Below, piece after piece: positions 4,757 to 41,714 of a stretch of 48,390 nt of DNA. Each line of letters opens with the position of its first letter. The stretch's first letter is position 1. Under the pieces are notes generated by a model, which saw only the letters and a list, made by a program, of their open reading frames with translations, had not been told where the DNA came from and ran no database searches. Position numbers and translations under genes: made by a program. Origin of the DNA: Gemmatimonadota bacterium (GTDB taxonomy: Bacteria; Gemmatimonadota; Gemmatimonadetes; Gemmatimonadales; GWC2-71-9); NCBI GenBank assembly GCA_003222205.1, contig QHVC01000047.1, positions 1 through 48,390 on the forward strand. Reading direction: 5' to 3'.

Positions 4757-4772
4757 CGGCACGCGTCGTGCT
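4757..4772 (+). promoter_or_regulatory. Sigma-54-type -24/-12 promoter for bEBP-1
   Basis: cGGcacgcgtcgtGCt: GG and GC separated by exactly 10 nt; 33 nt before ATG 4805. Confidence 0.65.
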
Positions 4773-4804
4773 GCGAAACGATCTGCCTCCTACGACCTTG
4801 GTCC

Positions 4805-5770
4805 ATGGTCCCGCTCGACCTAGCTGTTGATCCGGATTTGACCGATGCCCTAGTCGCAGCGTCTCCAGCAATGCTGGAGGTGGTACGGCAGTTGTCGATC
4901 TACGCGATCGCGCAGACGCCCCTGGTGCTGGCGGGGGCCACGGGGACGGGGAAGACATTTTGCGCCCACTTGGCTCACGATTGGAGCCGGCGGCGTGGGG
5001 CGTTCCTGGCGGTCAGCGCCGGCGAGTTGAACTCCCCGCTCGCCGCCAGCGAGCTGTTCGGGCACGTCCGAGGCGCCTTCACCGGAGCCGCAGGAAGTCG
5101 CGGCGGCTACTTCGCGTCGGCGCGCGGGGGCACCCTGCTGCTCGATGACTTTCAGAACCTCAAGCTGTCCAGACAGAAGATGCTGCTTGGCGTGCTCGAG
5201 GACGGGTCGTATCGCCCCGTGGGCTCTGACCGCCCGGTGTCGCTCGACTGCCGAGTAGTGATCGGACTCGACGACGACCCTGACACCCTGGTCGAGGCGC
5301 GGCGGCTGCATCCGCACCTCCGGTACCGGTTCGGGTATGCCGTGGTGCGGTTGCCGCCCCTCAACGAGCGGCGCGAGGAGATTCCGGCGTTGGCTCAGCG
5401 GTTCCTGGAGGAGTGCGCGGCGCGCACGGGGGTGGCCGATGGACCACGGGTGATCGCGCGGGACGCGCTGGCAACGCTGATGATGGGGGACTACCCGGGG
5501 AACGTGCGGCAGCTGCGCGGGATGATCGAGGCAGGGTACTTGCTCGCCAAAGGCGATGCGGAGCTACAGACATCGCATCTTCCGGGGAGCGCGCGAAGCG
5601 GTCTGCACTACGACCGACGGGCGCCGCGCGATGAGAACCTGCGCGCGATGTCGGCGGCGCTGGCCGCGACGGGGGGGCGGATCGAGCCGGCCGCGCGGTT
5701 GATTGGGGCAGGGAGGACGACGGCGTTTAGGCTGGTGAAGTACTTGGGAGGTGTAGAGCGCACCCTCTAG
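4805..5770 (+). CDS. Sigma-54-dependent transcriptional activator-like AAA+ protein (AAA+ plus HTH, no N-terminal sensory domain), bEBP-1
   Basis: Walker A GATGTGKT, GAFTGA loop, GGTLLLDDF, PGNVRQL, Fis-like C-terminal HTH (AALAATGGRIEPAARLIGAGRTTAFRLVKYL). Start moved from 4742 because the promoter precedes 4805. Confidence 0.85.
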   Translation: MVPLDLAVDPDLTDALVAASPAMLEVVRQLSIYAIAQTPLVLAGATGTGKTFCAHLAHDWSRRRGAFLAVSAGELNSPLAASELFGHVRGAFTGAAGSRGGYFASARGGTLLLDDFQNLKLSRQKMLLGVLEDGSYRPVGSDRPVSLDCRVVIGLDDDPDTLVEARRLHPHLRYRFGYAVVRLPPLNERREEIPALAQRFLEECAARTGVADGPRVIARDALATLMMGDYPGNVRQLRGMIEAGYLLAKGDAELQTSHLPGSARSGLHYDRRAPRDENLRAMSAALAATGGRIEPAARLIGAGRTTAFRLVKYLGGVERTL

Positions 5771-5854
5771 GACTGGGCTCTAAGGTTGGAGGAGGCCCAG
5801 GCCGAACGCGGACCGACCCATCGCCAACGCCAACACATAGAGCGCCCGACTTCC

Positions 5855-6286
5855 TTAGCGAACCGTGAGCTTCCTCACTACCATCACGATATCCCGATAG
5901 TGATGGGCGGTAAACGCGTGAAACAGGAGGCCCTTGGCAACGACAACGCGACCAACTAATTGCAGGTACTGCTCCTCAGGCGCAGCCATGTTCAATTGGA
6001 TCTCGGACACACCGGCTGTGGTGATATTGTTCTTGTCGCGAGCGGTATCCTGCTGGACGGTTACCGGGCTGGCTAGAATAAGAATCGGAAGCCGGAGTTT
6101 CTCGTCTCGCGCAGGGGTTTCCCCGTAGCCAGGTGCACCGAGGTGGTCCTCCACCTTAAGGCGACCGGTGAGTTCGACGATGGCCGGTGCGTATCGAAGT
6201 TCCGGGCCGCGCATTGCACGTTGGCACGATAGAGAGAACGTGCAGGCCCACCCGAGAGTGAGAATAGTCAGCATCGAAGCTCTCAT
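5855..6286 (-). CDS. Small envelope protein, candidate cognate immunity protein (DUF4431-like from memory)
   Basis: N-terminal signal-like segment MRASMLTILTLGWACTFSLSC; ATGA 4-bp overlap with the preceding RHS tip; motif LFHAFTAHHYRDIVMVV. Confidence 0.6.
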   Translation of the reverse strand: MRASMLTILTLGWACTFSLSCQRAMRGPELRYAPAIVELTGRLKVEDHLGAPGYGETPARDEKLRLPILILASPVTVQQDTARDKNNITTAGVSEIQLNMAAPEEQYLQLVGRVVVAKGLLFHAFTAHHYRDIVMVVRKLTVR

Positions 6287-7881
6287 GGCCACCACGACCA
6301 GGTTACCGTTCCAGGTGCATGCCCCTCTTGTCGATAAATTGCGCTAGCTAACAGGTTGATCTGGTCTCGACTAAGGGTGCTCAAGAGAGTCGATCCTGAA
6401 ATGCCGGTCCAGCTCCTGACGTTCGCTTGGTATGTGGCAACGTCGGTTCGGCTCCATGCCGCGATGGCGTCGTTCAGTGTCAAAGCTTGGTAGGTTGAGG
6501 TCGTCAGATTGGCAACCTCGGCACGCCAGCCTGAACCGAAATCGGCGAAGATCGCAAAACGGCGCCCATCAGGTTCGTCGAGTTCCCCGATCGCTGCGTT
6601 CTCCCACGCAAACTCTCCATTTGCTGTCAGGTTACCGGGATTGTTCGCCCGCCATGCGGGATCGCCCCCGGACCGAATCTCCTCAGTGCCGTCGTCATAC
6701 AAGATATGCACGCTGAGGCCATCATCAGAGTAGGCGTAGAAAGCCCGTGGTCCCTGAGCTTGCGCGAAGCGAAGCCGATCCGCCCGTGCCTCATCCAACC
6801 CAGCCCACGGGCTGAGCGTGCCATCGCGAAGGCCTGGTCCCGAGAAATCCCAGTCACCAGCGTCATCACCGAGAGGGGCTCCGTCAAGGTAGACCGCCGG
6901 GCCGCTGTACCAGGATCGCCACGGCCTCATTGGGATCGGGTCGACGCCGTACGTCATTCCACTCGCGTCCCTCCCCTCCAGCGGACCCCCGTCGCCGTAT
7001 GCGTAGAGGTTTCCCCCCCCTCCATACCCAATCGGATCCGCCTGGATGAACCGCCGGACGCCAGGGTCGTAGTACCGCGCCCGGAAGAAATAGAATCCGG
7101 TTTCGCTGTCATACTCCCGCCCCGTCCACTGATACCGCAGCTTCAACGTGAGCGTGCGGCTGGAGTCATTAGACACGACCGCCCCGTACGGCCCGTAGCG
7201 CAGGCTCCGCAGCCATGTGCCGTCGCGCTTGATCAGCCCGCGCACGCTGTGCAGACGGTCCTGCACCACGTAGTACACCGTCTTGCCCACCCCGGCCACG
7301 GTGTCTTGAATGGCCAGGAGATCATCGCTCGCCGGGCCATATTCGTAGCGGAGGCCGATGGTCCCGCCGGAATCCGTCTCGAACCCCACGTTCGCGCCGC
7401 GATACACGAAGCGGGTATAGGCCACGGTCCCGCCGGTGCTATTCGAGTACACGCGCTTGGCGATGCGGCGGCCGAGCACGTCGTAGCCGTAGCGCACGAT
7501 GAGAGTGCCGTTGTAGCGCGCGCTGCGCAGACGATTCAAGGCGTCGTATTGGTACGTCCACGTGTTCGCGCCGCAGGTCCGCGATATGAGGTTGCCGGCG
7601 CGGTCATAGCTGAAGCTCGAGCAGCCGGCCGTCGCCGTGAGGCGGTCGGTGGTGAGGTCATACACCTCGGCCCCGGCCGTCGTCTTGATGTTCCCCGCCC
7701 GGTCGAAGGCAAACGTGTCCCGCGCCACCCAGTTCGTGTCGAGCTGCTTCTCCACCCACACGGTGAGGCGCTCCCAGCCGTCGTAGGTCACCGAATCGCG
7801 CAGCGTGTCCACCCTGGTGCCGGACCCCAGCTGCTCGTGCCAGGTCGGAATGAGAGGGAATCCCGGCGCGTCCGGCTCCAC
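6283..7881 (-). CDS. 5'-truncated orphan RHS cassette: RHS core plus C-terminal tip with phage-lysozyme-like RANNPGN...GRRFAIF region
   Basis: RHS core RYYDPGVRRFIQADPIGYGGGGNLYAYGDG; RHS homology runs to about 7985 with no N-terminal secretion region; near-duplicate of the 10345-11345 segment. Confidence 0.8.
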   Translation of the reverse strand: MEPDAPGFPLIPTWHEQLGSGTRVDTLRDSVTYDGWERLTVWVEKQLDTNWVARDTFAFDRAGNIKTTAGAEVYDLTTDRLTATAGCSSFSYDRAGNLISRTCGANTWTYQYDALNRLRSARYNGTLIVRYGYDVLGRRIAKRVYSNSTGGTVAYTRFVYRGANVGFETDSGGTIGLRYEYGPASDDLLAIQDTVAGVGKTVYYVVQDRLHSVRGLIKRDGTWLRSLRYGPYGAVVSNDSSRTLTLKLRYQWTGREYDSETGFYFFRARYYDPGVRRFIQADPIGYGGGGNLYAYGDGGPLEGRDASGMTYGVDPIPMRPWRSWYSGPAVYLDGAPLGDDAGDWDFSGPGLRDGTLSPWAGLDEARADRLRFAQAQGPRAFYAYSDDGLSVHILYDDGTEEIRSGGDPAWRANNPGNLTANGEFAWENAAIGELDEPDGRRFAIFADFGSGWRAEVANLTTSTYQALTLNDAIAAWSRTDVATYQANVRSWTGISGSTLLSTLSRDQINLLASAIYRQEGHAPGTVTWSWWP

Positions 7882-7985
7882 ATCGTTCCGCTCCCAGGTC
7901 CCAGGCTCCCAGCTCGACGACGGCAGTGTGTTGGCTAGCGTGGTGAGCTCGCCCGTAAGGTTCCAGTCGGACCAGCGGCTGAGGC
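6960..7985 (-). repeat. Direct repeat of RHS core shared with 10345-11345
   Basis: Long near-identical blocks, e.g. cggtcgaaggcaaacgtgtcccgcgccacccagttcgtgtcgagctgcttctccacccacacggtgaggcgctcccagccgtcgtaggtcaccgaatcgcgcag in both. Confidence 0.9.
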
Positions 7986-9687: not shown

Positions 9688-12600
9688 CTAGACCGGTCCG
9701 GCACACACATCCCCCCACAAGTTGGCCAACCCGGTTCCAGTGTCGTCCGCGTCGAAGTCGAGAGGGTTAGCTTCATGGTACTCCTCGTGGGCGAGCGTGT
9801 TCGCGAGCTCGCCAGTGTCGAACGCGTGCTTCCCGAGGGTCACTACGCCTGTGAGAGGGTCCCATGCTCCGTAAGCCCACTTTCCCGTTTGAGGGTCGCG
9901 GAGGTTCCGTTGGTACACCATTCTGAACCTGGTAAAATCGCGTGCGGCAGCGAAACCAAACGCACTGCATTCCGGCATCGGACTTGATTGGAGGTTGTCC
10001 ATAGCTCCGGCGAGCTTGTCGCACTGGTTCCGACTGAACCCCTCCATCTTGCATGTCTGATACCGCTTGTCATCCTGTTGCTCCTGTCTTTGCTCAGCTC
10101 TGCTACGTAGCCTATTGTCTCTCTGCTCAGCGTCAAGGAACGCGGCCTCATCAGGGCCTAGGAACGCCCACGGATCGCCCCACATTGGACCAAAGTCAGG
10201 GTGCACATCGAACCGGCTACCTCCACCGAAGAGGTCGAAATCGGGGTCTACACCAACCCCGCTACAGTCCAGACTCCAGCAATTGTTGAACACAGGGCCT
10301 GTGCAGGAACCCGTGTCGCAGTTCATTGTCGTTCCGATAGGGTCTCTTCCCTCAAGCGGCCCCACGCCGTACGTGTATAAGTTCCCCCCACCCCCGTACC
10401 CGATCGGGTCCTCCTGGATGAACCGCCGCACGCCAGGGTCGTAATACCGCGCCCGGAAGAAATACAGCCCAGTCTCCGAGTCATACTCCCGCCCCGTCCA
10501 CTGATACCGCAGCTTCAACGTGAGCGTGTGGTTGGAGTCATTTGACACGACCGCCCCGTAGGGCCCATAGCGCAGGCTCCGCATCCACGTGCCGTCGCGC
10601 TTGATCAGGCCGCGCACGCTGTGCAGCTTGTCTTGCACCACGTAGAAGTGGTTCCCGCTGGCGTCGCGAATGGCGAGCAGATCGTCGCTGGCCGGCCCAT
10701 AGGTATACTGGAGGCCGATGGTCCCGCCGGAGTCCGTCTCGAACCCCACGTTGGCGCCGCGATACACGAAGCGGGTATAGGCCACGGTCCCGCCGGTGCT
10801 ATTCGAGTACACGCGCTTGGCGATGCGGCGGCCGAGCACGTCGTACCCGTAGCGCACGATCAGGGTGCCGTTGTAGCGCGCACTGCGTAGACGATTCAGG
10901 GCGTCGTATTGGTAGGTCCACGTGTTCGCGCCACAGGTGCGCGCGGTGAGGTTGCCGGCGCGGTCGTAGCCGAAGCTCGAGCAGCCGGCCGTTGCCGTGA
11001 GGCGGTCGGTCGTGACGTCATACACCTCGGCCCCGGCTGTCGTTTTGATGTTCCCCGCCCGGTCGAAGGCAAACGTGTCCCGCGCCACCCAGTTCGTGTC
11101 GAGCTGCTTCTCCACCCACACGGTGAGGCGCTCCCAGCCGTCGTAGGTCACCGAATCGCGCAGCGTGTCCACCCTGGTGCCGGACCCCAGCTGCTCGTGC
11201 CAGGTCGGAATGAGAGGGAATCCCATCGCGTCCGGCTCTACATCGTTCCGCTCCCAGGTCCCGGGCTCCCAGCTCGACGACGGCAGGGTGTTCGCTAGTG
11301 TGCTCAGCTCGCCGGTGAGGTTCCAGTCGGACCAGCGGCTGAGCCCCAGCCCGGCGGCGCGAATGGACGGGCCACGGGGTCGGGACTGCCCGTCGAAGTC
11401 GTACGTGATCGTGTCGGCGAACGGCGTGATCAACGTGTCCGCGTACCCGCGGCTTGCTTCGTACCGCAGGGTCCAGGTGCCGACCGGGTCCGTCGTCGTG
11501 CTGCGGCGCTCGTAGGTATCGTAGGTGTAGGACGTGGCCCGGACCGTCGCGCCGGTGTAGCTCGTGTCGGCCTTGAGTCGCCCGCGCAGGTCGAAGCCCC
11601 AGCGCAGCTCGGCGTTCACCCCGCCGATCGAATCCACAGGACTGTCGTACCACGCGCGCGTTACTTGATCCAGCGGTCCGCCGAAGGCCCGCCGCAGCGT
11701 TCCCACGCCGGGGATCACCGACAGTGTATCGCGGTTGCGGCTGTCGTAGTTGGTCGTCAACGTGTCGCCGCGGCGGGTGATCGTCTTCTTCACGTTCCCC
11801 GTGATGTCGTACACGAAGCTGTCCCGCACCGCCATGGAATCGGTCCACGGGTGGCGGCTCACCACGCGGCCCAAGCGGTCGTAAAGATACAGCACGGCCT
11901 TACCGCGGTCGTTGAGGCGGAGAGAGTCCCGTCCTGCACGATCGAACCGGTAGCGCACCCGGACGACATGGATGCTGTCGGTGTCGAGGTTGCTCGGCCA
12001 CCCTGCGGCGTTACACGGATTGTTGCAGGTGTCGGTACGGATCAGGCGAGCAGAGTCGGTCTGGCCAGCGACGTTGAAGAACGCCTGCGAGCGGCGCCAC
12101 TGCCACCTGGGTGCTGTATCGGGCTGCTGCACGCGGATCTTGCGGTCGGAAACCGAGTCGCGGCCCAAGACATCTACCTGCGTCGTGTCGGTGAGCATGC
12201 CGCTCTCGTCGTGTGCGCTCACCGCGTTCTTCCATGTCGGGTGATAGCTGAACCGGCGCGACTTGGTGACCCCGGGCAATCGGGTCGAATCGAGGAGCCC
12301 GTCGCTGCGGTACCAGAACTTCGTCGTGTCGTTGTGCGGCGTGATGGAGTAGATGACCCGGCCCAGCGAGTCGTAGGTCACGCGGGAGGTGTCCCCGATC
12401 AGCCCGATCGTCTTGATCACACGGTGGCTGGCATCGTAGACCAGGCTGTCGAGCCGCAGGATGTCGTTCGCGGCGCGCGTGATGTAGCTCTTGACGGGCC
12501 GGCCCAACGCGTCGTACGCGTGGTAGACGCGGCTCGAGTCGGCCACCTTCCCCTCAGTCCATAGCACGAACCCCTCTGCTGTGTACTCGCTGCGACCCAG

Positions 12601-14604
12601 CGTGCCGAGCGCGTCCCACGTCTTGCGCGCCTCACCCCAGCGGTTGAGCAGCGACCGCGTCCAGTTGGCGCGCGGGTCCTTCATCTCCACGTACACGCTG
12701 TCGAGGCTGCGCAGTGCGCCGAAGCCCTGGCGCTCGTAAGCGGTGTAGGTGATCACCGGCCGCACGATAGCTCCGCCCGTGTCCACAGCGGGCAACGACA
12801 CCTGCGCCGGCCGCCGCTTGAAGGTGCTGTCGTAGGTCACGATCGTCGTGTCGGCGATGACCCCAATGCGCTGGGTCAGGACCAGAGTGCCTGTCCCGGC
12901 ATACGGCTGGTAGGTAAAGCGAGTCGTGAAGGGCCTGGTCGTTGAGGAGCTGATCGAGTCGTACGTGAGCTGGTTGGTCGAGCCGTCGATCGACACCTTC
13001 GACTGTCGAGTGCCGGGATCGGTCCAGGTTGCCAGCTTGCCGTTGCCGTCGTAGCCGAGGGTGATCCCCTTCCCCACCGGGTCCACGAACGCCGTCACCT
13101 GGTCGCTGGCGCCCGAGTAGGCGATCGAGTCTCGATTCCCGCTCGCGTCCGCCGACGCCTGGAGGCGTCCGTTGCTGTCGAAGACGAGCTTGGCGGGCGT
13201 GCCGCGGAAGTGCAGCTCCCACCCCGAGCCCACCTTGACCAGCGTGGAGAGGTCCCCCGGCGGCGCGACCCAGAGACTGTCGCCGTTCCCCCGGAACACC
13301 GCTGCCGTCCCGCCCGCGCCGACCAGCAGCCGGTCACTCCCCACCCCCACGAGCTGCAGCGCGCCGCTCGGCCACCACCCCGACCCATAGCGCGTCGTGC
13401 GCCGGTCCACCAGCACCACCTCGACCGAGTCCGTGGCGATGTGCGTCGTCGCGCCGGAGGTCACGCGTGCTTCCACCGTAAGCCACTTGCGGGTCGGGGT
13501 CGAAAAGCCGGGGGGGCCAGAAAAGTCCCCTTGCAGCACGAGACGGCACCGGCGCGCCGGTCCCGTCGCACAGGTCGGGCTCGACACAGCGAGGGAGTCG
13601 AGCTTCGTCCCCCCAGAGTCGTAGAGGATCACCTTGATCTGGTCCGGCGTCCCGGCCGGCCAGGTGAGCTCGAGATCGATCGGCACGAGGGCCCGCGGGT
13701 AGGACTGCCGAGTGGAGTACACCAACCCCGCGCTGTGGCCCGCGCCCATCGAGACGTAGGCGGGAATCCCGATGCCGGTTTCGACCTCTCCTCCGCTCAC
13801 CGCCAACCCCGGTCCGAATGGCGCCCCGAACTGGCGGCCCAGCGCTTCGAGCGGCGCTCCCGTGAAGCCGATGACCGCCGCGCTGTCGTTGGGCAGAACC
13901 GCCCAGCGTGTGGCCGTGGCGCAGACACTGTCCAGAGAGCAGATCTTCACCGTCATCAGCCCGGAGTCGGCCAGGCCGAGCCAATGGGTCGAGTCTACCT
14001 CCCACTCCAGCAGCCCGCGATTGATCCTCGCCAACGTAGTCACGGTGTCCGTGGTGGACGCGCGTTTCCAACTCAGCACGACCGCGGTCGTGTCGATCCC
14101 GGCCCCGTGCGGCAGATAGGTCGCCCGGAGTAGCGGCTGGCGGTTGTGCACTACGGCCCGACTCCCGGACGTGAGCACCGGGGTGACGATGGCGATCGTT
14201 GGCTCCGTGCTGATCACGATGGTCCCGGGGTCGCTCGCATGCCCGGTGGCCGTCAACTGGAGGGTGCCCGGGCCGCTCACCGAATAGGTCACGGCCACCT
14301 TCTTCATCTGCTCGGCAGCCAACGTCGCCGAGCCCGGACTGACGGACACACAAGTCAGGCTCCCGGTGACTGAGCAGGAGAATGTGTAGAAGTCAGCGGC
14401 CGTACCGCTGTTCGTGACGACGAAGGTATCCACGTACTGTGCACCGGTGAGACGGCCCTCGTGCAGCCCGTCCGGCTCCACGTCCACGCTGTAGGTGCCG
14501 GTGCAGCCGGTTTGGCATTGTTGTGCGGCAGCGTGGTGAGGGCGAACGGCGACTCCGATGAAGAGCAAGGTCGTCAGTATTACAGCGGAGCGACAGGCGA
14601 GCAC
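9688..14604 (-). CDS. Full-length secreted RHS/YD-repeat protein; C-terminal tip with HEEYH metalloprotease-like motif
   Basis: Signal MLACRSAVILTTLLFIGVAVRPHHAAAQQ, Ig-like N-terminal repeats, YD repeats, RHS core RFIQEDPIGYGGGGNLYTYG, tip ...ELANTLAHEEYHEANPLDF. Start moved from 14643 to GTG 14604 because the -24/-12 element covers 14639-14654. Confidence 0.88.
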   Translation of the reverse strand: MLACRSAVILTTLLFIGVAVRPHHAAAQQCQTGCTGTYSVDVEPDGLHEGRLTGAQYVDTFVVTNSGTAADFYTFSCSVTGSLTCVSVSPGSATLAAEQMKKVAVTYSVSGPGTLQLTATGHASDPGTIVISTEPTIAIVTPVLTSGSRAVVHNRQPLLRATYLPHGAGIDTTAVVLSWKRASTTDTVTTLARINRGLLEWEVDSTHWLGLADSGLMTVKICSLDSVCATATRWAVLPNDSAAVIGFTGAPLEALGRQFGAPFGPGLAVSGGEVETGIGIPAYVSMGAGHSAGLVYSTRQSYPRALVPIDLELTWPAGTPDQIKVILYDSGGTKLDSLAVSSPTCATGPARRCRLVLQGDFSGPPGFSTPTRKWLTVEARVTSGATTHIATDSVEVVLVDRRTTRYGSGWWPSGALQLVGVGSDRLLVGAGGTAAVFRGNGDSLWVAPPGDLSTLVKVGSGWELHFRGTPAKLVFDSNGRLQASADASGNRDSIAYSGASDQVTAFVDPVGKGITLGYDGNGKLATWTDPGTRQSKVSIDGSTNQLTYDSISSSTTRPFTTRFTYQPYAGTGTLVLTQRIGVIADTTIVTYDSTFKRRPAQVSLPAVDTGGAIVRPVITYTAYERQGFGALRSLDSVYVEMKDPRANWTRSLLNRWGEARKTWDALGTLGRSEYTAEGFVLWTEGKVADSSRVYHAYDALGRPVKSYITRAANDILRLDSLVYDASHRVIKTIGLIGDTSRVTYDSLGRVIYSITPHNDTTKFWYRSDGLLDSTRLPGVTKSRRFSYHPTWKNAVSAHDESGMLTDTTQVDVLGRDSVSDRKIRVQQPDTAPRWQWRRSQAFFNVAGQTDSARLIRTDTCNNPCNAAGWPSNLDTDSIHVVRVRYRFDRAGRDSLRLNDRGKAVLYLYDRLGRVVSRHPWTDSMAVRDSFVYDITGNVKKTITRRGDTLTTNYDSRNRDTLSVIPGVGTLRRAFGGPLDQVTRAWYDSPVDSIGGVNAELRWGFDLRGRLKADTSYTGATVRATSYTYDTYERRSTTTDPVGTWTLRYEASRGYADTLITPFADTITYDFDGQSRPRGPSIRAAGLGLSRWSDWNLTGELSTLANTLPSSSWEPGTWERNDVEPDAMGFPLIPTWHEQLGSGTRVDTLRDSVTYDGWERLTVWVEKQLDTNWVARDTFAFDRAGNIKTTAGAEVYDVTTDRLTATAGCSSFGYDRAGNLTARTCGANTWTYQYDALNRLRSARYNGTLIVRYGYDVLGRRIAKRVYSNSTGGTVAYTRFVYRGANVGFETDSGGTIGLQYTYGPASDDLLAIRDASGNHFYVVQDKLHSVRGLIKRDGTWMRSLRYGPYGAVVSNDSNHTLTLKLRYQWTGREYDSETGLYFFRARYYDPGVRRFIQEDPIGYGGGGNLYTYGVGPLEGRDPIGTTMNCDTGSCTGPVFNNCWSLDCSGVGVDPDFDLFGGGSRFDVHPDFGPMWGDPWAFLGPDEAAFLDAEQRDNRLRSRAEQRQEQQDDKRYQTCKMEGFSRNQCDKLAGAMDNLQSSPMPECSAFGFAAARDFTRFRMVYQRNLRDPQTGKWAYGAWDPLTGVVTLGKHAFDTGELANTLAHEEYHEANPLDFDADDTGTGLANLWGDVCAGPV

Positions 14605-14638: not shown

Positions 14639-14654
14639 CGCACGGTCTATGCCG
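14639..14654 (-). promoter_or_regulatory. Sigma-54-type -24/-12 promoter for RHS 14604-9688
   Basis: Reverse complement cGGcatagaccgtGCg; 10-nt GG/GC spacing. Confidence 0.6.
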
Positions 14655-14936: not shown

Positions 14937-14952
14937 CGGCACATCTCCTGCC
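14937..14952 (+). promoter_or_regulatory. Sigma-54-type -24/-12 promoter for bEBP-2
   Basis: cGGcacatctcctGCc; 10-nt GG/GC spacing; lies inside the naive ORF, implying a downstream start. Confidence 0.6.
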
Positions 14953-16468: not shown

Positions 16469-16478
16469 CTAAAGGAGA

Positions 16479-31768: not shown

Positions 31769-32250
31769 AAGGCGTGGGGGCGTGGGGGGCGGGGGCGCTC
31801 GGGCTCGTCGGCGTGGTCGCTCTTGGGACGGCGAGTCTCGCACCAGTTGGCGATGACGGTGACCGGTCGACGGTTGCCGGTTATCGGTCGTCGGTTACCA
31901 CACCGGCGCAACCGTATCCAGCGGAGTCACTCGGCACGGTTGTCATCTCGCGCGACGTGTTCAGGGTTACCCGTCGTGCTGCGGACGTCGCCTACGATCC
32001 CGTGCGCCTGGCGCAGGTTGCCCTCCAGCCTCCAGCGCCCAAGCCCGTGCTCGTGCTGACCGGGATCGTGTGGGGCGCCGAGCCGCAGGCGGTGGTCGAA
32101 GGATGGCCGGGCGTGGAGGGCCCGCGCGTCGTACGCGCCGGCGATGTCGTGAGCGGGCTCAAGGTCAAGCGGATCGACGGGACGCGGGTGACGGTGGTCG
32201 GGATGGATACCACGTGGGTGCTGCAAGTGAGGGAGCCATGGAAAAACTGA
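31765..32250 (+). CDS. GspC-like (HR-domain) type II secretion protein
   Basis: VLTGIVWGAEPQAVVEGWPGVEGPRVVRAGDVVSGLKVKRIDGTRVTVVGMDTTWVLQV; N-terminal TM. Confidence 0.6.
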   Translation: MKGVGAWGAGALGLVGVVALGTASLAPVGDDGDRSTVAGYRSSVTTPAQPYPAESLGTVVISRDVFRVTRRAADVAYDPVRLAQVALQPPAPKPVLVLTGIVWGAEPQAVVEGWPGVEGPRVVRAGDVVSGLKVKRIDGTRVTVVGMDTTWVLQVREPWKN

Positions 32251-33743
32251 AACCCGTCGGATTGTCGGACGGTCGGACAGTCGGACTGTGGCTGGCCCTT
32301 GTGGCACTTGCTGCGCCGCTGCAGGCACAAGACACGGCGGCTGTCCGGATCGCAAACGACAGTGTCACGGTTCGGTTCGTCGAGACCGATCTGCGCGCGG
32401 TGATCCAGGCCCTCGGCCGTTATCTGCCGAAGCCCGTGCTGGTGGGCAACGTCCAGCCGGTGCGCGTCTCGCTGGAGACCCCAGGCCCCGTTGATCGCAA
32501 GACACTCGTCTCGCTCCTCAAGGGTCTTGTCGAATCACAGAGTCTCGACTTCACCGAAGACTCCTCGTTCTTTCGCGTTGGGCCGCGAGCACCTGACCGC
32601 CCGACCGCCGGACCGCCCGGGGGTGGGGGACCGGGGGGACAGGGGACCGCCGCAGTTCAGTTGTTCGTCGTTCGGTTGAAGCACGCCCGAGCTTCCGACG
32701 TCGCCGCCACGCTGAACCAGCTGTTCGGCGCCGGCGGAGAGTTCTCGGGTCGAGCGGGGCTCTCGACAGGCACGCTGTCCGACGAGCTGCGCCGCAACCA
32801 GGTGCCTCCGCAGCCCACGGGCGCCCAGCCCCCGCCCTCACCGTCCGTCAGTCCGACCGTCCGACGGTCTGCCTTGTCCGGTCCCGTCATCATCGTGCCC
32901 GATGAGCTGACGAACTCTTTGCTCATCCGGGCCGCGAAGGACGATTACGACGTGCTCGTGCAGGCGGTAGGCGAGCTGGACATCCGGCCGCTCCAGGTCT
33001 TGATCGAAGTGCTCATCGTCGAGGCGCGGCGCGACCGCACCTTCTCGATCGGCTCGAGTTTGTTCGTGCCACCGCAGCGGGTGGATCACGGCGACGGCAC
33101 GGCGTCCGTCAACGTCACGGGCGGCAGCCTCGGCGATTTCGTCTTGAAGCTCCTGAGCCTCGGCCACGCGGATGTGGATGCGACGATCACCGCGGCCGAG
33201 AGCCGCGGTGACGTGAAGATCCTGTCGCGTCCCGTGCTGCTCGCGTCGAATAACACCGAAGCTCGATTGCTCGTGGGGTCGCAGCGGCCGTTCGTCCAGG
33301 TGAGCCGCAGCCTCCCCACGGAGACGCCCACACGCGACCAAGTGGTGCAGTACCGGGATGTGGGCACGCGGCTCACGGTGCGGCCCACGATCAACCAGGA
33401 CGGGTACGTGTCGTTGCTCATTCAGCAGGAGGTGAACCAGGCGACGAGCGAGGTCGCGTTCGACGCTCCCGTGATCTCGACGCGCGAAGCGGCGACGCAG
33501 GTGCTGGTCAAGGACGGCCAGACGATCGTGATCGGCGGCTTGAAGGACGAGCAGCGGGATGTGACTCAGGGTGGGGTCCCGATCCTTTCCGGGATCCCGC
33601 TGATCGGGGGGCTGTTCGGCAGCGCCAGGAGGCAGAAGACGCAGACGGAGCTGTATCTGTTCCTGACGCCCAGGATTCTCAAGACCGATGCGGATGCGGA
33701 CAGTGTGACGGCGCCGCGGCTGCCGAAGGGGGTGGAGCGGTGA
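32238..33743 (+). CDS. gspD: Type II secretin GspD
   Basis: N-domains, GPVIIVPDELTNSLLIRA, VEVLIVEARRDR-type region, secretin signature VLVKDGQTIVIGGLKDEQRDVTQGGVPILSGIPLIGGLFGSARRQKTQTELYLFLTPRIL. Confidence 0.92.
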   Translation: MEKLKPVGLSDGRTVGLWLALVALAAPLQAQDTAAVRIANDSVTVRFVETDLRAVIQALGRYLPKPVLVGNVQPVRVSLETPGPVDRKTLVSLLKGLVESQSLDFTEDSSFFRVGPRAPDRPTAGPPGGGGPGGQGTAAVQLFVVRLKHARASDVAATLNQLFGAGGEFSGRAGLSTGTLSDELRRNQVPPQPTGAQPPPSPSVSPTVRRSALSGPVIIVPDELTNSLLIRAAKDDYDVLVQAVGELDIRPLQVLIEVLIVEARRDRTFSIGSSLFVPPQRVDHGDGTASVNVTGGSLGDFVLKLLSLGHADVDATITAAESRGDVKILSRPVLLASNNTEARLLVGSQRPFVQVSRSLPTETPTRDQVVQYRDVGTRLTVRPTINQDGYVSLLIQQEVNQATSEVAFDAPVISTREAATQVLVKDGQTIVIGGLKDEQRDVTQGGVPILSGIPLIGGLFGSARRQKTQTELYLFLTPRILKTDADADSVTAPRLPKGVER

Positions 33744-34753
33744 GCGCCCAACCAGAGTTAAGCCCGATCGTCGGCGCCTCGGTCGCGATGCGCCGCGCGC
33801 GGGAGCTGGTCGAACGCTACGCGCCCACCGCGCTGCCGATTCTCCTGGTCGGGGCGACCGGGACCGGCAAGGAGCTGCTGGCGCACCACATCCACCGGCG
33901 TAGTGGTCGTGTCGGGCGGTTTGTACCGGTGAACTGCGGTGCGCTGCCACGCGAAATGGTGGAGGGGCTGCTATTCGGCTTCGAGCGCGGCGCGTTCTCA
34001 GGAGCGGTGAAGCTTCACCGCGGGCACTTTGAGCGCGCGGATGGCGGGACAGTGTTTCTCGACGAGTTGCTGGCGCTGCCGCTGGAGAGTCAGGTCAAGC
34101 TGCTACGAGCGCTCGACGCCGGGGAGATCACGCGGTTGGGGGGAGAGACCGAGCGGTGCGTAGACGCACGGGTCGTGGCGGCGGTGCAGGAAGACGTGGG
34201 CGACCGGATCACCGGGGGCGATTTCCGGGAGGACTTTTATCAGCGCCTCGCGGGGGTGCGGATCGAGCTACCCCCCCTGGCCGATCGGCCGGAGGACATA
34301 CCGCTTCTGGCCATCCATTTCGCCGCGTGCCGAGGGCAGGTGCTCGAGCCGGCAGCGCTACGGGAAGTCAGACGGTACGAGTGGCCGGGGAACGCCCGGG
34401 AGCTGTTACTGGCGATGGAGCGGGCGGGGTGTCTCGTCGATGATGGAACCGTGTCGAGGGCCGCCGTGCTGGAGGCGATCGCGCTCGGCGGATCGGACCC
34501 GCGCCACCATCGCACGCCGGTGCGGTGCAGTGATGAAGACCAGCGGATACTCGATGCCTGTGTGGCTACACGGTGGGACCTTGGGAGCGCAGCACGGACC
34601 CTCGGCATCCACTTGGCGACCGTATACCGCCGGCTCCGCGCGATGGGCGTGTCCCCGCGCGAAGCGCGGGTGCAGGGACTGTTAGGGAATGCGAATTCGC
34701 AGGTTCGTCGCGCGAATTCGCGCGCAAATCAATCGATGGGGATCGGTAACTAG
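33740..34753 (+). CDS. Sigma-54 activator-like AAA+ protein bEBP-3, co-operonic with the T2SS
   Basis: GATGTGKE, GAFSGA (variant of GAFTGA), GGTVFLDEL, PGNARELLLAMERAG, C-terminal HTH; GTGA overlap with gspD. Confidence 0.88.
   Translation: MSAQPELSPIVGASVAMRRARELVERYAPTALPILLVGATGTGKELLAHHIHRRSGRVGRFVPVNCGALPREMVEGLLFGFERGAFSGAVKLHRGHFERADGGTVFLDELLALPLESQVKLLRALDAGEITRLGGETERCVDARVVAAVQEDVGDRITGGDFREDFYQRLAGVRIELPPLADRPEDIPLLAIHFAACRGQVLEPAALREVRRYEWPGNARELLLAMERAGCLVDDGTVSRAAVLEAIALGGSDPRHHRTPVRCSDEDQRILDACVATRWDLGSAARTLGIHLATVYRRLRAMGVSPREARVQGLLGNANSQVRRANSRANQSMGIGN
34690..34724. promoter_or_regulatory. Paired palindromic activator sites TGCGAATTCGCA and CGCGCGAATTCGCGCG, centres 21 bp apart, inside the bEBP-3 3' end
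   Basis: Perfect palindromes 34690-34701 and 34709-34724; same layout at 41614-41647. Confidence 0.75.
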
Positions 34754-34776
34754 GGTCACAACAAGGGGGGGGCGTC

Positions 34777-34792
34777 CGGCACGCGACGTGCT
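34777..34792 (+). promoter_or_regulatory. Sigma-54-type -24/-12 promoter for RHS 34831-39435
   Basis: cGGcacgcgacgtGCt; 39 nt before ATG 34831. Confidence 0.7.
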
Positions 34793-34830: not shown

Positions 34831-37800
34831 ATGATCGCCCCACGATTGTGGCCCTCCGTTCTCCTGGCTGTGGCTTTGTTTCCCGGGACTACGCCACCCA
34901 GGCTGCGAACCCGAATCGCTTCGCACCGCATCTCACTGCCCGGCACCAGCGCCAAGACCTGCCCCAAACTTCCCCAGGGGCCAAGCGGCGCTGAGCCTGA
35001 TGTTCTGAGCGAGGCTGGTCCGCCCACTTACGTAGACTACGCCGTATCGGTCACACCAGACGGCAGCCCCGTCACCTGGAGCGCATACACCAACGGGCAC
35101 ACCTCCACGTTTACGGTCACCAACACCGGCCTTTGCGGGGACACCTATACCTTCGCGAAGTCCGCGTGGGGGCCGATTTCTGGAGTCAGTCTCAACAAGA
35201 CCAGCTTTACCTTGCAGCCGGGGACCAACACGACGGTCGTTGCGACATACAACGTTGGTCCCCCGGGCACTGGTGTCCTTACACTAACCGCGACGGGCGT
35301 CAACGGTCTCGAGTCCGACAACGGCACCTTCAATGTAACAGTCCCGCTATTGAACGGGCCGGTGATTTCGCTTGCGGCGCACAACGGTGCATACCGGGAT
35401 GTGTCCAAGTGCGTCGCGGCGTGTTTCGACGCCGTGGCGAGCTATGCGACGCCACCGTACTTCAGCTTGGATGTGCCACGAAGCATACAACTCATCTACA
35501 CCAGCGCTCAAGCGAAGCCCATGGGACTCGTGCAGGTTGACGCGACCGATACGACCTCAGTCTCACCGGTCAAGATGTCCCTGCTGTTGCGACGGCCCGA
35601 CGGGACCTTCGTGAATTTCACCAACGGTTCTCAGGAGCTGTTCTTCGTTTGGGCCGCAGGAGCGAACCGACTCGTGGCGCAGTTTGACGCCAGCACGCTC
35701 GCCTCCGGTGCCTATGCGTACGTCGCCGTGGTGCGCAGCTATCGCGCGGACAACTCCTTTCGGGAGAATCTGGCGCCGGTGCGTGTGCTCATCAGCAATG
35801 AACAGAACAGTCCGTTCGGCGCTGGCTGGTCGATTGCGGGACTACAAAGACTCTTCTTTCAATCCGACAGCTCCATCGCAATCACCGAAGGGAATGGCTC
35901 CGTGGCTTACTTCGGCTCCGCGGCGTCCTGCCAGAGCAGCTGTTCCTATCCGTCATCCGCCAGCGACTTCTCGACTCTCACGAGCCGTGGCTCGTGGCCG
36001 GATAACGTCAAGTTCGATCGCCGGTATCCTGATGGAACGACATACTCTTTCTTCACGGATGGCCGGCTCGCGTACGTGAAGGATCGCTTCGGCAACACCA
36101 TTACCTACTCGTACAATGGCGCGAATCTCTTGACGGCAATCGTCGATCCCGCCGGTAAGGCGGATTCGCTTGGCTACTCGGGGAGCAACAAGCTGCTTTG
36201 GATCAAAGATCCTGGTGGCCGGCTGGACTCCGTAACGATCGACGCTTCCTCAAACTTGACAAGGATCCGGGACTACGCGGGAGGGCTTCCCTTCCAAGGC
36301 AGTTATGATGGCAATCACCGTCTTCTGGGCTGGTCGGATCGGCGAGGGGGCGCATGGGGTGTGTCCTATGACTTCTCCGGCAAGGTCGCGTCCGATACAG
36401 CGCCGCAGGTTACCGCGAGTGGACAGCAGCTGCGCCCGACCCGTTTGTATACATCGATCGAGAAGGGAATCTTGGTCGATCCGGCGTCAGGGTACGGGAC
36501 CTCTGGGAACCCGGCACCGCATATCAATACGTCGGCGCTACGCGCCACCGTCACAAATCCCAGAGGTTACACGACCGCGTACGCCCTCGATCGGTACGGG
36601 GCTCCGACACGTATCGAGGAACCGTTGGGCCGCACGACAGCCTTCCAGCGGGACACGAGTGCCCACGTGACTCGCGACAGTTTGCCCTCCGGCCAGGTCA
36701 TCAAATACACGTGGAGCGGCCCGAACCTGACGCAACGGTGGGATAGCGCCACGGGTCGGACCATCAACTACTTGTACGAGATGACCTATAACCGGGACAC
36801 CCTTGTCTACGGCGACGTGGATACCGTCCGCAACCGTTGGCACGGTGGTCATCTCGATAGCACCCTGGTTACGGGGTGGGGGGCGTGGCAAACCTATACT
36901 TACTCCCCGTCTGGGCGCCTCCTCACCCGCACCGATCCGGGAGCCCACGGCGCCATCTACCACTATCAGGCGACGGGATTTCAGAACCTGGATACGGTGA
37001 CCTCGACTGCCGGCGGTTACACAATCGGGAAGGTGACCCGCCAGTACGATGGCCACGGCCAGCCACTCACGGCCGTCAATGAGGTGGGAAGTACAACCAC
37101 GCTGGTATACGATTCGACTGGCCGCGTTTTCAAGACGATAGGCCCCCTCTCCGACACGACCATCCAAACTTTCGACTCGCTGTATCCGATCCAGGTCCGC
37201 GATGCGAAGGGTCAGCTCTACAGGTCGTGGGTGAACGCCCTCGGCTGGGCCGATTCGATTGCGGATCCGGGGGGGCATGTCGATCACTATGGGTATGACG
37301 CGAACGGGAATCTCACCAGCTGGACGACCCGGCTCGGGCAGAGTATCCAGTTCACCTATGACTCACTCGATGTCGCACGCTTGGTGATCGTCGGCAACGA
37401 TACGACCAAGCTCTATACGGACCCGGCCGGGCGTTACGCGGCCGTTTCTAACCGCGAGAGTACCGATACGCTGCGCTTCGACGTTGCCGGCCGGCCTCTG
37501 GTCGCGATCACCTGCCGTGTCCTTGCCGCCGGCAACGCCGCGCAATGCTTCAGAGACAGCTCGTCGTACCAAATCAGGGACCGGCGCACGGCCACGGTGG
37601 TAGCGGCGCCGGGCATCTGGGGCGGTTCACAGTTTTCGATACTGTACCATTACAACAATCGGTCGGTGCTGGATACGCTGACGAATTTTGCCGGTGAGAA
37701 GGCGACCTTTGCGTCAAACCCCGAGCTCATGCCGGCGGGGACGACGCTCCTGGGTCTGAACAACCTCAGCATTGCATTCGAGTACGTATGGAATCACCGG

Positions 37801-39435
37801 AGTGATGAGATTCAGCTGAGCGACTCAACGCTGAATGCGGCGCTGCGCATGGGATACTATTTCGGCCTCTCGGGCAGTACGGATGAGAGGTACCACGGGC
37901 CCGCCGGCTCTCCGGACACCAGCAGGAGTTTCGAGTATGACAATGCCGGGGAACTCACCTCGTATATCGACACGCTTCATAGCTGGGGCCAGCAGACCTC
38001 AGGGTGCAATAACAACCTTCGTGGGGATGAGTGCTCCTCCCACTTCGACACCCCGACTTTGCTCCGCTGGGTCAGTTACACCTACGACCGCGTCGGCAAC
38101 CGGCAAGATCCCGTAGCGCCGGCGGGAGGGCTTGACGTTGGGAACCGGTTGCGCCGCTGGCAGCAATACCGCATGGACTACGACGTGGCGGGAAATCTCA
38201 TTCTGAAGCGCACGGTGAGCGCTACCGACACGACGGTCGTTTTGCGGAGAGACTCGCTGTTCTGGAGCGCTCTGGGAAGGCTCGATAGCGTCCGTACGCG
38301 AGACAGCGTTGGCGCCTTGACCAAGGTCGCCTTCGGTTACGACGGGTTGGGGCGAAGAGTTCGGAAATCGAGCGCCTCCGGAACAAGCCGCTTTCTCTGG
38401 GATGGTGATGCGCTTTTGATGGAGCTCGACACGCTGGGGAATCGGGTGGCCGAGTACACCTACAACCCGGCGGTCGACGCTCCACAGAGCGTGGTGCGCC
38501 ACGATCTCGGGGATGCGATCTACTACTATCTGCAAGGGGTCGAGGGCAACATTCTGGCGCTCCTCCAGCGGAACGGGACGAGTGTCACGATCGCGAATCA
38601 GTACCGCGAGGGTCCGTTCGGTGATGAGAGGGTGGCTAACGGCACGGCTCCAAACGCCCTCCGTCACGCCGGCCGGGAGTATGACTCGGAGACGCAGTTC
38701 TACTACTTCCGTGCCAGGTACTACGACCCTGCCGTCGGTCGCTTTATTTCGGAGGATCCGTTAGGCCTGGGTGCTGGGATAAACCAATACGCTTACGCCG
38801 GGAACGATCCCGTGAATCGTGGGGATCCAAGCGGCCTGAGCGGCGGTTGCAGCTCAACTCCTAAACTGATGGCGTCCGCAGCGTCCTCCGCGAGCTGCTC
38901 GAGCGGTGGTGGTAGCTCGAACATGGACATTGCCGATGCGGTCGATGCATGGTTTTGGTCGAATTTCGGCTTTGGGCTCTCTGATGCGTTGGCCATGCCG
39001 GGTGACGATATCCTGTTCTTCATTAACCCTTACGGTTACGCGCAGTGGGAGGTCAAGGGTGGCGTAGCAGAATTCGCCGACGACTTCCAAGGAACCCAAT
39101 TCGGTCGCGAACGGAAGTGGGTAATCCCAGGTTTGCAGAAGAGATGCCCTCTCGTTGCTGGTCGGAGTCTCGTTGAAGGACGCGTGAACGATGGAGGGGA
39201 TTTCGTCTACGTCACTGGTCTGGTGCTCTTGCATCGGACCTCGGATCGCGGCAAACCCTATGTCCTTACGGGAAAGGGATACTATGCGGGGCGTATCTCG
39301 GTGTATGGTACGCCCTACTACCTGTTCAAGTTGTTCGGTATTGATATTCCGGGCAAACCTTATGGTGGCCCGGTGACAGGTACCTTAGACTGTGTGACTG
39401 GTGTGGCGGAACTCCAGGGTTTTAGTGTCAACTAA
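34831..39435 (+). CDS. Full-length secreted RHS/YD-repeat protein with a C-terminal tip of unknown activity
   Basis: Signal-like MIAPRLWPSVLLAVALFPG, Ig-like domain, YD repeats, RHS core REYDSETQFYYFRARYYDPAVGRFISEDPLGLGAGINQYAYAGNDPVNRGDPSGL. Confidence 0.88.
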   Translation: MIAPRLWPSVLLAVALFPGTTPPRLRTRIASHRISLPGTSAKTCPKLPQGPSGAEPDVLSEAGPPTYVDYAVSVTPDGSPVTWSAYTNGHTSTFTVTNTGLCGDTYTFAKSAWGPISGVSLNKTSFTLQPGTNTTVVATYNVGPPGTGVLTLTATGVNGLESDNGTFNVTVPLLNGPVISLAAHNGAYRDVSKCVAACFDAVASYATPPYFSLDVPRSIQLIYTSAQAKPMGLVQVDATDTTSVSPVKMSLLLRRPDGTFVNFTNGSQELFFVWAAGANRLVAQFDASTLASGAYAYVAVVRSYRADNSFRENLAPVRVLISNEQNSPFGAGWSIAGLQRLFFQSDSSIAITEGNGSVAYFGSAASCQSSCSYPSSASDFSTLTSRGSWPDNVKFDRRYPDGTTYSFFTDGRLAYVKDRFGNTITYSYNGANLLTAIVDPAGKADSLGYSGSNKLLWIKDPGGRLDSVTIDASSNLTRIRDYAGGLPFQGSYDGNHRLLGWSDRRGGAWGVSYDFSGKVASDTAPQVTASGQQLRPTRLYTSIEKGILVDPASGYGTSGNPAPHINTSALRATVTNPRGYTTAYALDRYGAPTRIEEPLGRTTAFQRDTSAHVTRDSLPSGQVIKYTWSGPNLTQRWDSATGRTINYLYEMTYNRDTLVYGDVDTVRNRWHGGHLDSTLVTGWGAWQTYTYSPSGRLLTRTDPGAHGAIYHYQATGFQNLDTVTSTAGGYTIGKVTRQYDGHGQPLTAVNEVGSTTTLVYDSTGRVFKTIGPLSDTTIQTFDSLYPIQVRDAKGQLYRSWVNALGWADSIADPGGHVDHYGYDANGNLTSWTTRLGQSIQFTYDSLDVARLVIVGNDTTKLYTDPAGRYAAVSNRESTDTLRFDVAGRPLVAITCRVLAAGNAAQCFRDSSSYQIRDRRTATVVAAPGIWGGSQFSILYHYNNRSVLDTLTNFAGEKATFASNPELMPAGTTLLGLNNLSIAFEYVWNHRSDEIQLSDSTLNAALRMGYYFGLSGSTDERYHGPAGSPDTSRSFEYDNAGELTSYIDTLHSWGQQTSGCNNNLRGDECSSHFDTPTLLRWVSYTYDRVGNRQDPVAPAGGLDVGNRLRRWQQYRMDYDVAGNLILKRTVSATDTTVVLRRDSLFWSALGRLDSVRTRDSVGALTKVAFGYDGLGRRVRKSSASGTSRFLWDGDALLMELDTLGNRVAEYTYNPAVDAPQSVVRHDLGDAIYYYLQGVEGNILALLQRNGTSVTIANQYREGPFGDERVANGTAPNALRHAGREYDSETQFYYFRARYYDPAVGRFISEDPLGLGAGINQYAYAGNDPVNRGDPSGLSGGCSSTPKLMASAASSASCSSGGGSSNMDIADAVDAWFWSNFGFGLSDALAMPGDDILFFINPYGYAQWEVKGGVAEFADDFQGTQFGRERKWVIPGLQKRCPLVAGRSLVEGRVNDGGDFVYVTGLVLLHRTSDRGKPYVLTGKGYYAGRISVYGTPYYLFKLFGIDIPGKPYGGPVTGTLDCVTGVAELQGFSVN

Positions 39436-40112: not shown

Positions 40113-40122
40113 ACAGAACGCG

Positions 40123-40663: not shown

Positions 40664-40699
40664 CAGAGCGGTCGAGATGTGGCTGTGCTCCCTGATGAA

Positions 40700-41213: not shown

Positions 41214-41455
41214 CTCTCGAAATCCACGACACGACTGGAACGTGAGACACAACCTTGAGCGGTTCCTCGGACGTTGATCGCTAGTGGGCGTCCCAACTCA
41301 ACTGTTCAGGCTGACTGTTCCCTCATCCTCCAAATTCTCCAACTGGGTTCAACCAATTCCCTAGCCCGAATCGCTCCCGGGAAGCGCGCCGGGTCCGGCG
41401 TGAATGCCGGAAACACGGCGCTCAGGTCCTGGGCACCGAGGTGGCGCGCCAAGCT

Positions 41456-41602
41456 GCGGATCGGGCCCGACCCCCGGCAGCTCCGCCCCGATCGACCCGG
41501 CCACGTGGCCCAGCCGCGAGAACTGGATCCACTCACCCAGCCTCGACCATCGGGACCACCCGCCCCTAGGTTCTTGGCTACGCCGAGTCTCGGATTCAGA
41601 GG
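41456..41602 (-). pseudogene. Internal/3' remnant of the 47541-48390 gene
   Basis: ccggcagctccgccccgatcgacccggccacgtggcccagccgcgagaactggatccac ... gcctcgaccatcgggaccacccgcccctaggttcttggctacgccgag versus the 47630-47800 region. Confidence 0.8.
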
Positions 41603-41605
41603 CCT

Positions 41606-41676
41606 CCGGGAGCGCGAATTCGCACCCTCACCGCGCGAATTCGCGCGAAAATCAGTCGGCGCGAATCGGTAACTAG
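41606..41676 (+). pseudogene. Duplicated 3' tail of bEBP-3 carrying the palindromic activator sites (41614-41623, 41632-41647)
   Basis: ANSHPHRANSRENQSARIGN* versus bEBP-3 ANSQVRRANSRANQSMGIGN*; two GCGAATTCGC palindromes with centres 21 bp apart. Confidence 0.8.
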
Positions 41677-41698
41677 CGTCACTACAAGGCGGTGGGCG

Positions 41699-41714
41699 GG
41701 GCATGGGACCTGCC
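41699..41714 (+). promoter_or_regulatory. Sigma-54-type -24/-12 promoter for RHS 41750-47425
   Basis: gGGcatgggacctGCc; 10-nt GG/GC spacing; 35 nt before GTG 41750. Confidence 0.6.

What the first reader, a model, noticed from the sequence alone, without database searches (positions are those of the whole stretch)
4757..41714. Seven exact-spaced sigma-54-type promoters unite RHS genes, bEBPs and the T2SS operon into one regulon
The element GGCAY-N6-TGC (GG and GC separated by 10 nt, as in TGGCACG-N4-TTGCW) lies about 33-51 nt before the start codon of all four full-length RHS genes (14639-14654 -, 24492-24507 -, 34777-34792 +, 41699-41714 +), bEBP-1 (4757-4772), bEBP-2 (14937-14952) and gspE (24785-24800). 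bEBP-3 is inside the T2SS operon. Sigma-54 plus a dedicated AAA+ activator would give all-or-none expression of effectors and exporter. Motif positions were read from sequence; function is inferred.
Basis: partly seen in the sequence, partly recalled or inferred. Interest (0 to 1): 0.93.

Follow-up and report, generated by a model that had tools for sequence, protein, structure and literature searches.

The report
Sigma-54 promoters of a toxin-exporter locus
In a soil bacterium, four giant RHS toxin-like genes, a type II secretion operon and two of their regulators all carry the same rare sigma-54 on-switch, but pairs of them carry different upstream docking sites, so the locus looks like several matched switches sharing one sigma factor, not one master switch.

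Summary
All seven GGCAY-N6-TGC sites are at the stated positions, 33-51 nt before plausible starts. Their raw number is unremarkable against shuffles (9 found, 4.7 expected). Their placement is not: 7 of 9 lie 15-75 nt before transcription-unit starts (P about 1e-12), and spacers other than 6 nt give 0-1. Elsewhere in the genome only 4 of 327 sampled genes carry the motif there; three are typical sigma-54 targets (a P-II gene and two pilin genes). rpoN and GAFTGA-type activators are present. The box recurs before RHS, gspE and bEBP genes in orthologous loci of five other genomes.

The 'one all-or-none regulon' reading is only partly supported. I found three different palindromic enhancer types: ACCGTACC pairs (RHS-A and bEBP-2), CTATG/CATAG arrays (RHS-B and gspE), and GCGAATTCGC pairs (RHS-C and RHS-D). 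Genome-wide, the first and third occur only here. Orthologues keep the core box and enhancer position, but enhancer sequences differ between genomes. Best model: one sigma factor and several sensor-less activators, each matched to its own cassette, with bEBP-3 (last gene of the T2SS operon) activating RHS-C and RHS-D. Activator pairing is inferred; nothing has been measured.

The parts
4757..4772 (+). sigma-54 core promoter of bEBP-1 (GGCACGCGTCGTGC), 33 nt before ATG 4805
   Evidence: the bEBP-1-like gene of G073:C3 has GGCCCGGGCGTTGC upstream
4805..5770 (+). bEBP-1: AAA+ sigma-54 activator, no N-terminal sensor domain, GAFTGA, Walker B 'DD'
9688..14604 (-). RHS-A gene, start GTG 14604, hydrophobic Sec-like N-terminus
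   Evidence: start chosen by eye
14639..14654 (-). sigma-54 core promoter of RHS-A (GGCATAGACCGTGC), 35 nt before GTG 14604
14727..14758 (.). UAS type 1, copy 1: ACCGTACCA-N14-TGGTACGGT
   Evidence: one of only two such sites in the genome
14854..14883 (.). UAS type 1, copy 2: ACCGTACCA-N12-TGGTACGGT
14937..14952 (+). sigma-54 core promoter of bEBP-2 (GGCACATCTCCTGC), 42 nt before GTG 14994
14994..16022 (+). bEBP-2: AAA+ sigma-54 activator with Fis-type HTH, no sensor domain
18964..24441 (-). RHS-B gene, ATG 24441, hydrophobic Sec-like N-terminus
24492..24507 (-). sigma-54 core promoter of RHS-B (GGCACGGCGTATGC), 51 nt before ATG 24441
24607..24645 (.). UAS type 2, copy 1: CTATG-N20-CATAG-CA-CTATG array
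   Evidence: CATAGYRCTATG absent from the 395 kb genome sample
24682..24720 (.). UAS type 2, copy 2: CTATG-N20-CATAG-TG-CTATG array; 29 of 39 bases equal to copy 1
24785..24800 (+). sigma-54 core promoter of the gspE operon (GGCACGCTCGTTGC), 35 nt before ATG 24835
   Evidence: conserved before gspE in G118 (GGCACGTGCTATGC, 28 nt)
24835..33743 (+). T2SS operon: gspE, G, F, H/I/J-like pseudopilins, K, PilN-like L, M, a C-like protein, secretin D
33740..34753 (+). bEBP-3, last gene of the T2SS operon: AAA+ sigma-54 activator, GAFSGA, Fis-type HTH
34691..34721 (.). UAS type 3 before RHS-C: GCGAATTCGC-N11-GCGAATTCGC, inside the 3' end of bEBP-3
   Evidence: unique in the genome together with the RHS-D copy; similar element in G213
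34747..34756 (+). TAACTAGGGT element between UAS and core promoter; likened to TAA[CG]TC.. found 40-41 nt before the core box in orthologues
34777..34792 (+). sigma-54 core promoter of RHS-C (GGCACGCGACGTGC), 39 nt before ATG 34831
34831..39435 (+). RHS-C gene
41614..41644 (.). UAS type 3 before RHS-D: GCGAATTCGC-N11-GCGAATTCGC
41670..41679 (+). TAACTAGCGT element, RHS-D copy
41699..41714 (+). sigma-54 core promoter of RHS-D (GGCATGGGACCTGC), 36 nt before GTG 41750
41750..47425 (+). RHS-D gene, GTG 41750

Best explanation
The seven sites are real sigma-54 (RpoN) -24/-12 core promoters. They bring four RHS genes, a T2SS operon and two sensor-less enhancer-binding proteins under RpoN. Cassette-specific palindromic enhancers about 60-105 nt upstream of the box (a second copy sometimes further out), each read by its own bEBP, decide which promoter fires. 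Proposed wiring: bEBP-3, made as the last gene of the T2SS operon, binds GCGAATTCGC pairs and switches on RHS-C and RHS-D, so effectors follow the exporter; bEBP-1 or bEBP-2 acts on the CTATG/CATAG arrays shared by RHS-B and gspE and on the ACCGTACC pairs shared by RHS-A and bEBP-2 (the latter auto-activating). The bEBPs lack sensor domains, so their activity would be set by how much of each is made or by an unseen anti-activator. Shown by sequence: core boxes, enhancer palindromes, bEBP domains, conservation. Inferred: transcription, which bEBP binds which enhancer, the cascade, and that the T2SS exports the RHS proteins.
For: Core promoters: exact spacing control and placement; 7/29 window genes against 4/327 elsewhere, three of those four being P-II and pilin genes; rpoN with RpoN box. 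Orthologous loci keep the box: RHS in G014 (GGTACGGGGCGTGC, 34 nt), G073 (two, 35 nt each), L182 (36 nt) and G213; gspE in G118 (28 nt); bEBP-1-like gene in G073:C3. Separate enhancers: three unrelated palindrome types, each shared by two promoters; types 1 and 3 occur nowhere else in the 2.97 Mb genome, type 2 not in the 395 kb sample. Perfect arms of at least 9 in 4 of 7 upstream regions against 15 of 324 background regions. In orthologues a palindrome sits at about the same distance with other letters: GTTCACTGAAC in G073, GGAATTCC in L182, GTCGCACC..GGTGCGAC in G118. G213, whose bEBP-3 helix (HRATVYRR) nearly equals the window's (HLATVYRR), also has GCGAATTCGC. In G102 the bEBP loop reads GAYTTA and its RHS gene has no GG-N10-GC at the usual place.
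Against: No transcript, start-site or binding data. The bEBP-1 promoter has no clear palindrome. bEBP-1 and bEBP-2 have DD for DE in Walker B and lack the first arginine of the FR..L.R region, so they may be weak ATPases or hetero-oligomer partners. RHS-C and RHS-D share their UAS inside an 88-nt block that is 81% identical, so that sharing reflects duplication and is not independent evidence; the RHS-A/bEBP-2 and RHS-B/gspE pairs share theirs because they are divergent. In G073 the RHS gene after bEBP-3 has no core box and reads in frame with the bEBP gene, so read-through from the T2SS operon is possible. The helix/UAS match rests on one pair of genomes, and the G102 covariation on one case.
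Confidence: 0.72

Rival explanations
1. One all-or-none regulon: a single bEBP, or interchangeable bEBPs, activates all seven promoters together.
For: All seven have the same core box, and the three bEBPs are related to one another (33-34% identity of bEBP-1 and bEBP-2 to bEBP-3). Sensor-less bEBPs at high level can activate promoters without a specific UAS (own knowledge).
Against: Three unrelated, locus-specific palindromes; different recognition helices; sigma-54 is also used by P-II and pilin genes in this genome, so the box alone defines no regulon.
Confidence: 0.15
2. The core boxes are real but the palindromes are operators of unrelated regulators (repressors, or a toxin/antitoxin-like autoregulator), and activation does not depend on UAS type.
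For: Palindromes alone do not name their binder, and the arms vary in spacing (about N10 to N14).
Against: Position about 60-105 nt upstream of -24 in most loci and in orthologues whose bEBP differs, which suits enhancers better than repressor sites; UAS type 3 is found with near-identical bEBP-3 helices in two families.
Confidence: 0.1
3. Chance: GGCAY-N6-TGC matches in GC-rich sequence that a reader happened to collect, with transcription from ordinary promoters.
For: The count in the window is within the shuffle range.
Against: Placement P about 1e-12 and the spacer control, genome control, conservation in five other genomes. No sigma-70-like promoter found in 24400-34900, though that scan may not fit this phylum.
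Confidence: 0.03

Closest known systems
RpoN/Sfa2 control of the Pseudomonas aeruginosa H2-T6SS and its vgrG/effector islands (PMC8855297; VasH of Vibrio cholerae is the homologue there)
   Same: A bEBP encoded with the secretion machine and sigma-54 jointly drive machine and toxin genes; separate bEBPs (Sfa2, Sfa3) are not interchangeable.
   Different: Here the machine is a T2SS and the cargo RHS genes; three sensor-less bEBPs lie in one locus (Sfa2 has a GAF domain); each pair of promoters has its own enhancer palindrome.
HrpR/HrpS (type III secretion, Pseudomonas syringae) and PspF: bEBPs without a sensor domain (own knowledge)
   Same: AAA+ core plus HTH only; control by abundance or anti-activators; a secretion system as target (HrpR/S).
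   Different: HrpR/S act mainly at one promoter (hrpL); here several bEBPs appear divided over separate cassettes.
Sigma-54 as controller of the bacterial exterior (PMC3162934; title and abstract only)
   Same: Targets are exported or surface components.
   Different: I know of no described sigma-54 T2SS-RHS locus; paper searches found none.
Sigma-54 regulome and bEBPs of Desulfovibrio vulgaris (PMC4641369; abstract only)
   Same: Many bEBPs in one genome sharing sigma-54 promoters.
   Different: Here several enhancer types lie within one 40-kb exporter/effector locus.

Membership tests
sigma-54 (-24/-12) promoter | GG-N10-GC core with C(A)Y after GG and T before GC | tested here: met
   only spacer 6 of GGCAY-Nk-TGC gives the seven sites
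sigma-54 (-24/-12) promoter | rpoN in the genome | tested here: met
   (PF04552, E 1.9e-63), RpoN box ARRTVAKYR
sigma-54 (-24/-12) promoter | the same pattern marks known sigma-54 genes of the genome | tested here: met
   P-II and two pilin genes among 4 of 327
sigma-54 (-24/-12) promoter | palindromic candidate bEBP sites upstream | tested here: met
   palindromes or half-site arrays in six of seven upstream regions; binding itself not shown
sigma-54 (-24/-12) promoter | IHF site between UAS and core | tested here: inconclusive
   one perfect consensus match (G073 RHS2); most others at background level; a different conserved TAA[CG]TC element seen; two HU/IHF-family genes in the genome
sigma-54 (-24/-12) promoter | transcription start about 12 nt after GC and loss without rpoN | not testable with these tools
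   needs RNA data
bacterial enhancer-binding protein (NtrC/NifA family) | Sigma54_activat AAA+ domain with Walker A and GAFTGA loop | tested here: met
   (GAFTGA, GAFTGA, GAFSGA)
bacterial enhancer-binding protein (NtrC/NifA family) | Walker B DE and both arginines of the R-finger region | tested here: inconclusive
   met by bEBP-3; bEBP-1 and bEBP-2 have DD and lack the first arginine
bacterial enhancer-binding protein (NtrC/NifA family) | C-terminal Fis-type HTH | tested here: met
   PF02954 in bEBP-2 and bEBP-3; bEBP-1 only by alignment
type II secretion system | GspE, F, G, K, M, D and pseudopilins in one operon | tested here: met
sigma-54-controlled T6SS plus effectors (Sfa2/VasH type) | T6SS core genes at the locus | tested here: not met
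   the exporter genes of the window are T2SS; T6SS genes not searched genome-wide
RHS exported by T2SS | RHS proteins leave the cell through this T2SS | not testable with these tools
   Sec-like N-termini seen by eye only

The most novel reading that the evidence does not exclude
A recurrent, rapidly diversifying module (T2SS operon ending in a sensor-less bEBP, followed by an RHS gene) in which the sigma-54 core promoter is fixed while each bEBP and its palindromic enhancer change together, so that one genome holds several insulated effector switches behind one sigma factor, and the exporter operon encodes the activator of the effectors it may export.
Probability: 0.45. Interest if true: 0.72.

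Novelty: new variant of a known kind. Interest (0 to 1): 0.56.

Why it matters
Which machine exports RHS giants outside T6SS is not settled, and shared control with a T2SS operon is a concrete lead. The locus also offers a natural set of bEBP/enhancer pairs that differ between close relatives while the core promoter stays fixed, which makes bEBP DNA specificity and insulation of sigma-54 circuits directly testable.

Tried and rejected
Count of the motif in the window as evidence: rejected, shuffles reach it. Full consensus TGGCACG-N4-TTGCW: too strict for this genome; with 2 mismatches it is no better than shuffles. IHF sites as a general feature: rejected as background-level except one. Finding more orthologues by profile at 1e-70 in the class: most hits were generic bEBPs; only the clear score gap (G014, G073, G118, G102) plus G213, checked by gene order, was used. 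G075, G390 and G463 hits: response-regulator-type or unrelated bEBPs, no RHS or T2SS seen nearby. Wrong binning of the contig as cause: the orthologous loci G014, G073, G118 and G102 lie in the same family as the window's genome, which speaks for the placement, although a near-identical contig is filed in a bin labelled Acidobacteria.
Full report
Observation. The seven GGCAY-N6-TGC sites are present at the stated coordinates. Using starts chosen from coding statistics and, for several genes, by eye, they end 33, 35, 42, 51, 35, 39 and 36 nt before the start codons of bEBP-1, RHS-A, bEBP-2, RHS-B, gspE, RHS-C and RHS-D. The count in the window is not unusual against dinucleotide shuffles, but it is four times the genome's own rate (131 in 2.97 Mb; P 4e-4). 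Placement is what convinces: 7 of 9 lie 15-75 nt before a transcription-unit start. When the spacer is set to any value from 2 to 10 other than 6, no site (one for spacer 9) lies before these starts.

Rest of the genome. In 20 stretches (395 kb) 4 of 327 genes have the motif 15-75 nt upstream. They are a P-II gene, two tandem pilin-like genes on a contig that also carries bEBPs, and a TPR protein. P-II and pilin genes are classical sigma-54 targets (own knowledge), so the pattern reports sigma-54 promoters in this organism. Of 30 other genome matches read, 20 lie inside genes and 3 stand 17-58 nt before a start. rpoN is present with its RpoN box, and the genome has about 15 clear bEBPs. All RHS-repeat matches in the genome fall in this window.

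Orthologous loci. bEBP-3 orthologues are rare: 4 of 288 genomes of the order (the window's own included) at E below 1e-68, plus G102 and G213 and L182 from the contig collection. In G073, G118, G102 and G213 the secretin gene precedes the bEBP gene, with an RHS gene after it in G073, G102 and G213; L182 has bEBP then RHS on a stretch that starts inside the bEBP gene; G014 has bEBP then RHS but has lost most of the T2SS. The core box stands before RHS in G014 (GGTACGGGGCGTGC, 34 nt), twice in G073 (35 nt each), in L182 (36 nt) and in G213 (about 96 nt by my choice of start); before gspE in G118 (28 nt); and before the bEBP-1-like gene of G073 as GGCCCGGGCGTTGC. The second G073 box precedes a degenerate reading frame. 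Two absences fit decay or a change of mechanism: G014, with truncated gspE and no box before it, and G102, whose bEBP loop reads GAYTTA and whose RHS gene lacks GG-N10-GC at the usual place. Both are single cases.

Upstream elements. The divergent RHS-A/bEBP-2 region holds two ACCGTACCA-N14/12-TGGTACGGT repeats, the only two in the genome. The divergent RHS-B/gspE region holds two 39-nt arrays CTATG-N20-CATAG-YR-CTATG (29 of 39 equal); CATAGYRCTATG is absent from the sampled 395 kb. RHS-C and RHS-D each have GCGAATTCGC-N11-GCGAATTCGC; with up to two mismatches these are the only two in the genome, but they sit in an 88-nt duplicated block. Perfect inverted repeats with arms of 9 or more occur in 4 of 7 upstream regions and in 15 of 324 background regions. 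In orthologues a palindrome stands about 60-100 nt upstream of the box with different letters: GTTCACTGAAC at both G073 RHS promoters, GGAATTCC in L182, GTCGCACC..GGTGCGAC in G118 gspE, GCGAATTCGC in G213. Between palindrome and box, TAA[CG]TC... stands 40-41 nt before GG in G014, G073 (both), G118 and L182; TAACTAG stands 30-31 nt before it at RHS-C and RHS-D, about one helical turn nearer. It resembles an IHF site only in one case, so its role is open.

Mechanism. One sigma factor, several enhancers: the box commits these genes to RpoN, and the enhancer type decides which activator is needed. bEBP-3 lies last in the T2SS operon and directly before RHS-C. Its recognition helix nearly equals that of G213, the other genome with GCGAATTCGC, so bEBP-3 acting on RHS-C and RHS-D is the best-supported pairing. 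bEBP-1/2-type genes sit next to gspE in G118 and G014, which suggests, weakly, that this type drives gspE. bEBP-1 and bEBP-2 have DD in Walker B and lack the first arginine of the finger region; they could work as weak or mixed oligomers. None of the three has a sensor domain in Pfam. RHS-C may also be read through from the T2SS operon.

Known relatives. Control of a secretion machine and its toxins by sigma-54 with a locus-encoded bEBP is known for T6SS: Sfa2 in Pseudomonas aeruginosa and VasH in Vibrio cholerae (PMC8855297). Paper searches found no sigma-54 T2SS-RHS system; the library is incomplete. I therefore call it a new variant of a known kind.

Noticed in passing
window 39614-39627 (+): An eighth, high-scoring sigma-54-like site (TGGCACTCATAGTGCT) inside ORF 39498-40112, 44 nt before the in-frame ATG 39672; it could be the promoter of a shorter version of this small gene between RHS-C and RHS-D.
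   Followed up: partly
window 7805-8206 (+) with 6283-7881 (-): A remnant of a bEBP C-terminus (GWAVEPAARMIGAERTTGFRL, similar to bEBP-1) beside a truncated RHS gene: a decayed RHS/bEBP cassette.
   Followed up: no
window 16300-18201: Orphan RHS 3' fragments 84-98% identical to the 3' part of RHS-B, followed by a different C-terminal tip: displaced tip modules.
   Followed up: no
window 35619-35730; L180 5949/5950: A contig 99.99-100% identical to 29670-44862 (QHWJ01000061.1) lacks 112 nt inside RHS-C, which shifts its frame, and is binned as Acidobacteria gp6, in conflict with the family of the window's genome.
   Followed up: partly
G102:C80 (L147) 8032-9150: bEBP with GAYTTA instead of GAFTGA, no -24/-12 box before its RHS gene, but several TGAGACG half-sites upstream: possibly a bEBP that has left sigma-54.
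   Followed up: partly
G073:C102 (L095) 12639-18746 (-): The bEBP-3 orthologue and the following RHS gene form one open frame of about 2036 codons with no stop between them, and no sigma-54 box in between.
   Followed up: partly
L095, L097, L090, L182: 40-41 nt before the core box: Conserved TAA[CG]TC.. element at fixed distance in five promoters of four genomes; binder unknown.
   Followed up: partly
window 3390-3482 (+): ARAGORN calls a tRNA-Ala inside the MCP gene; 93 nt long and within a strong coding frame, probably false.
   Followed up: no
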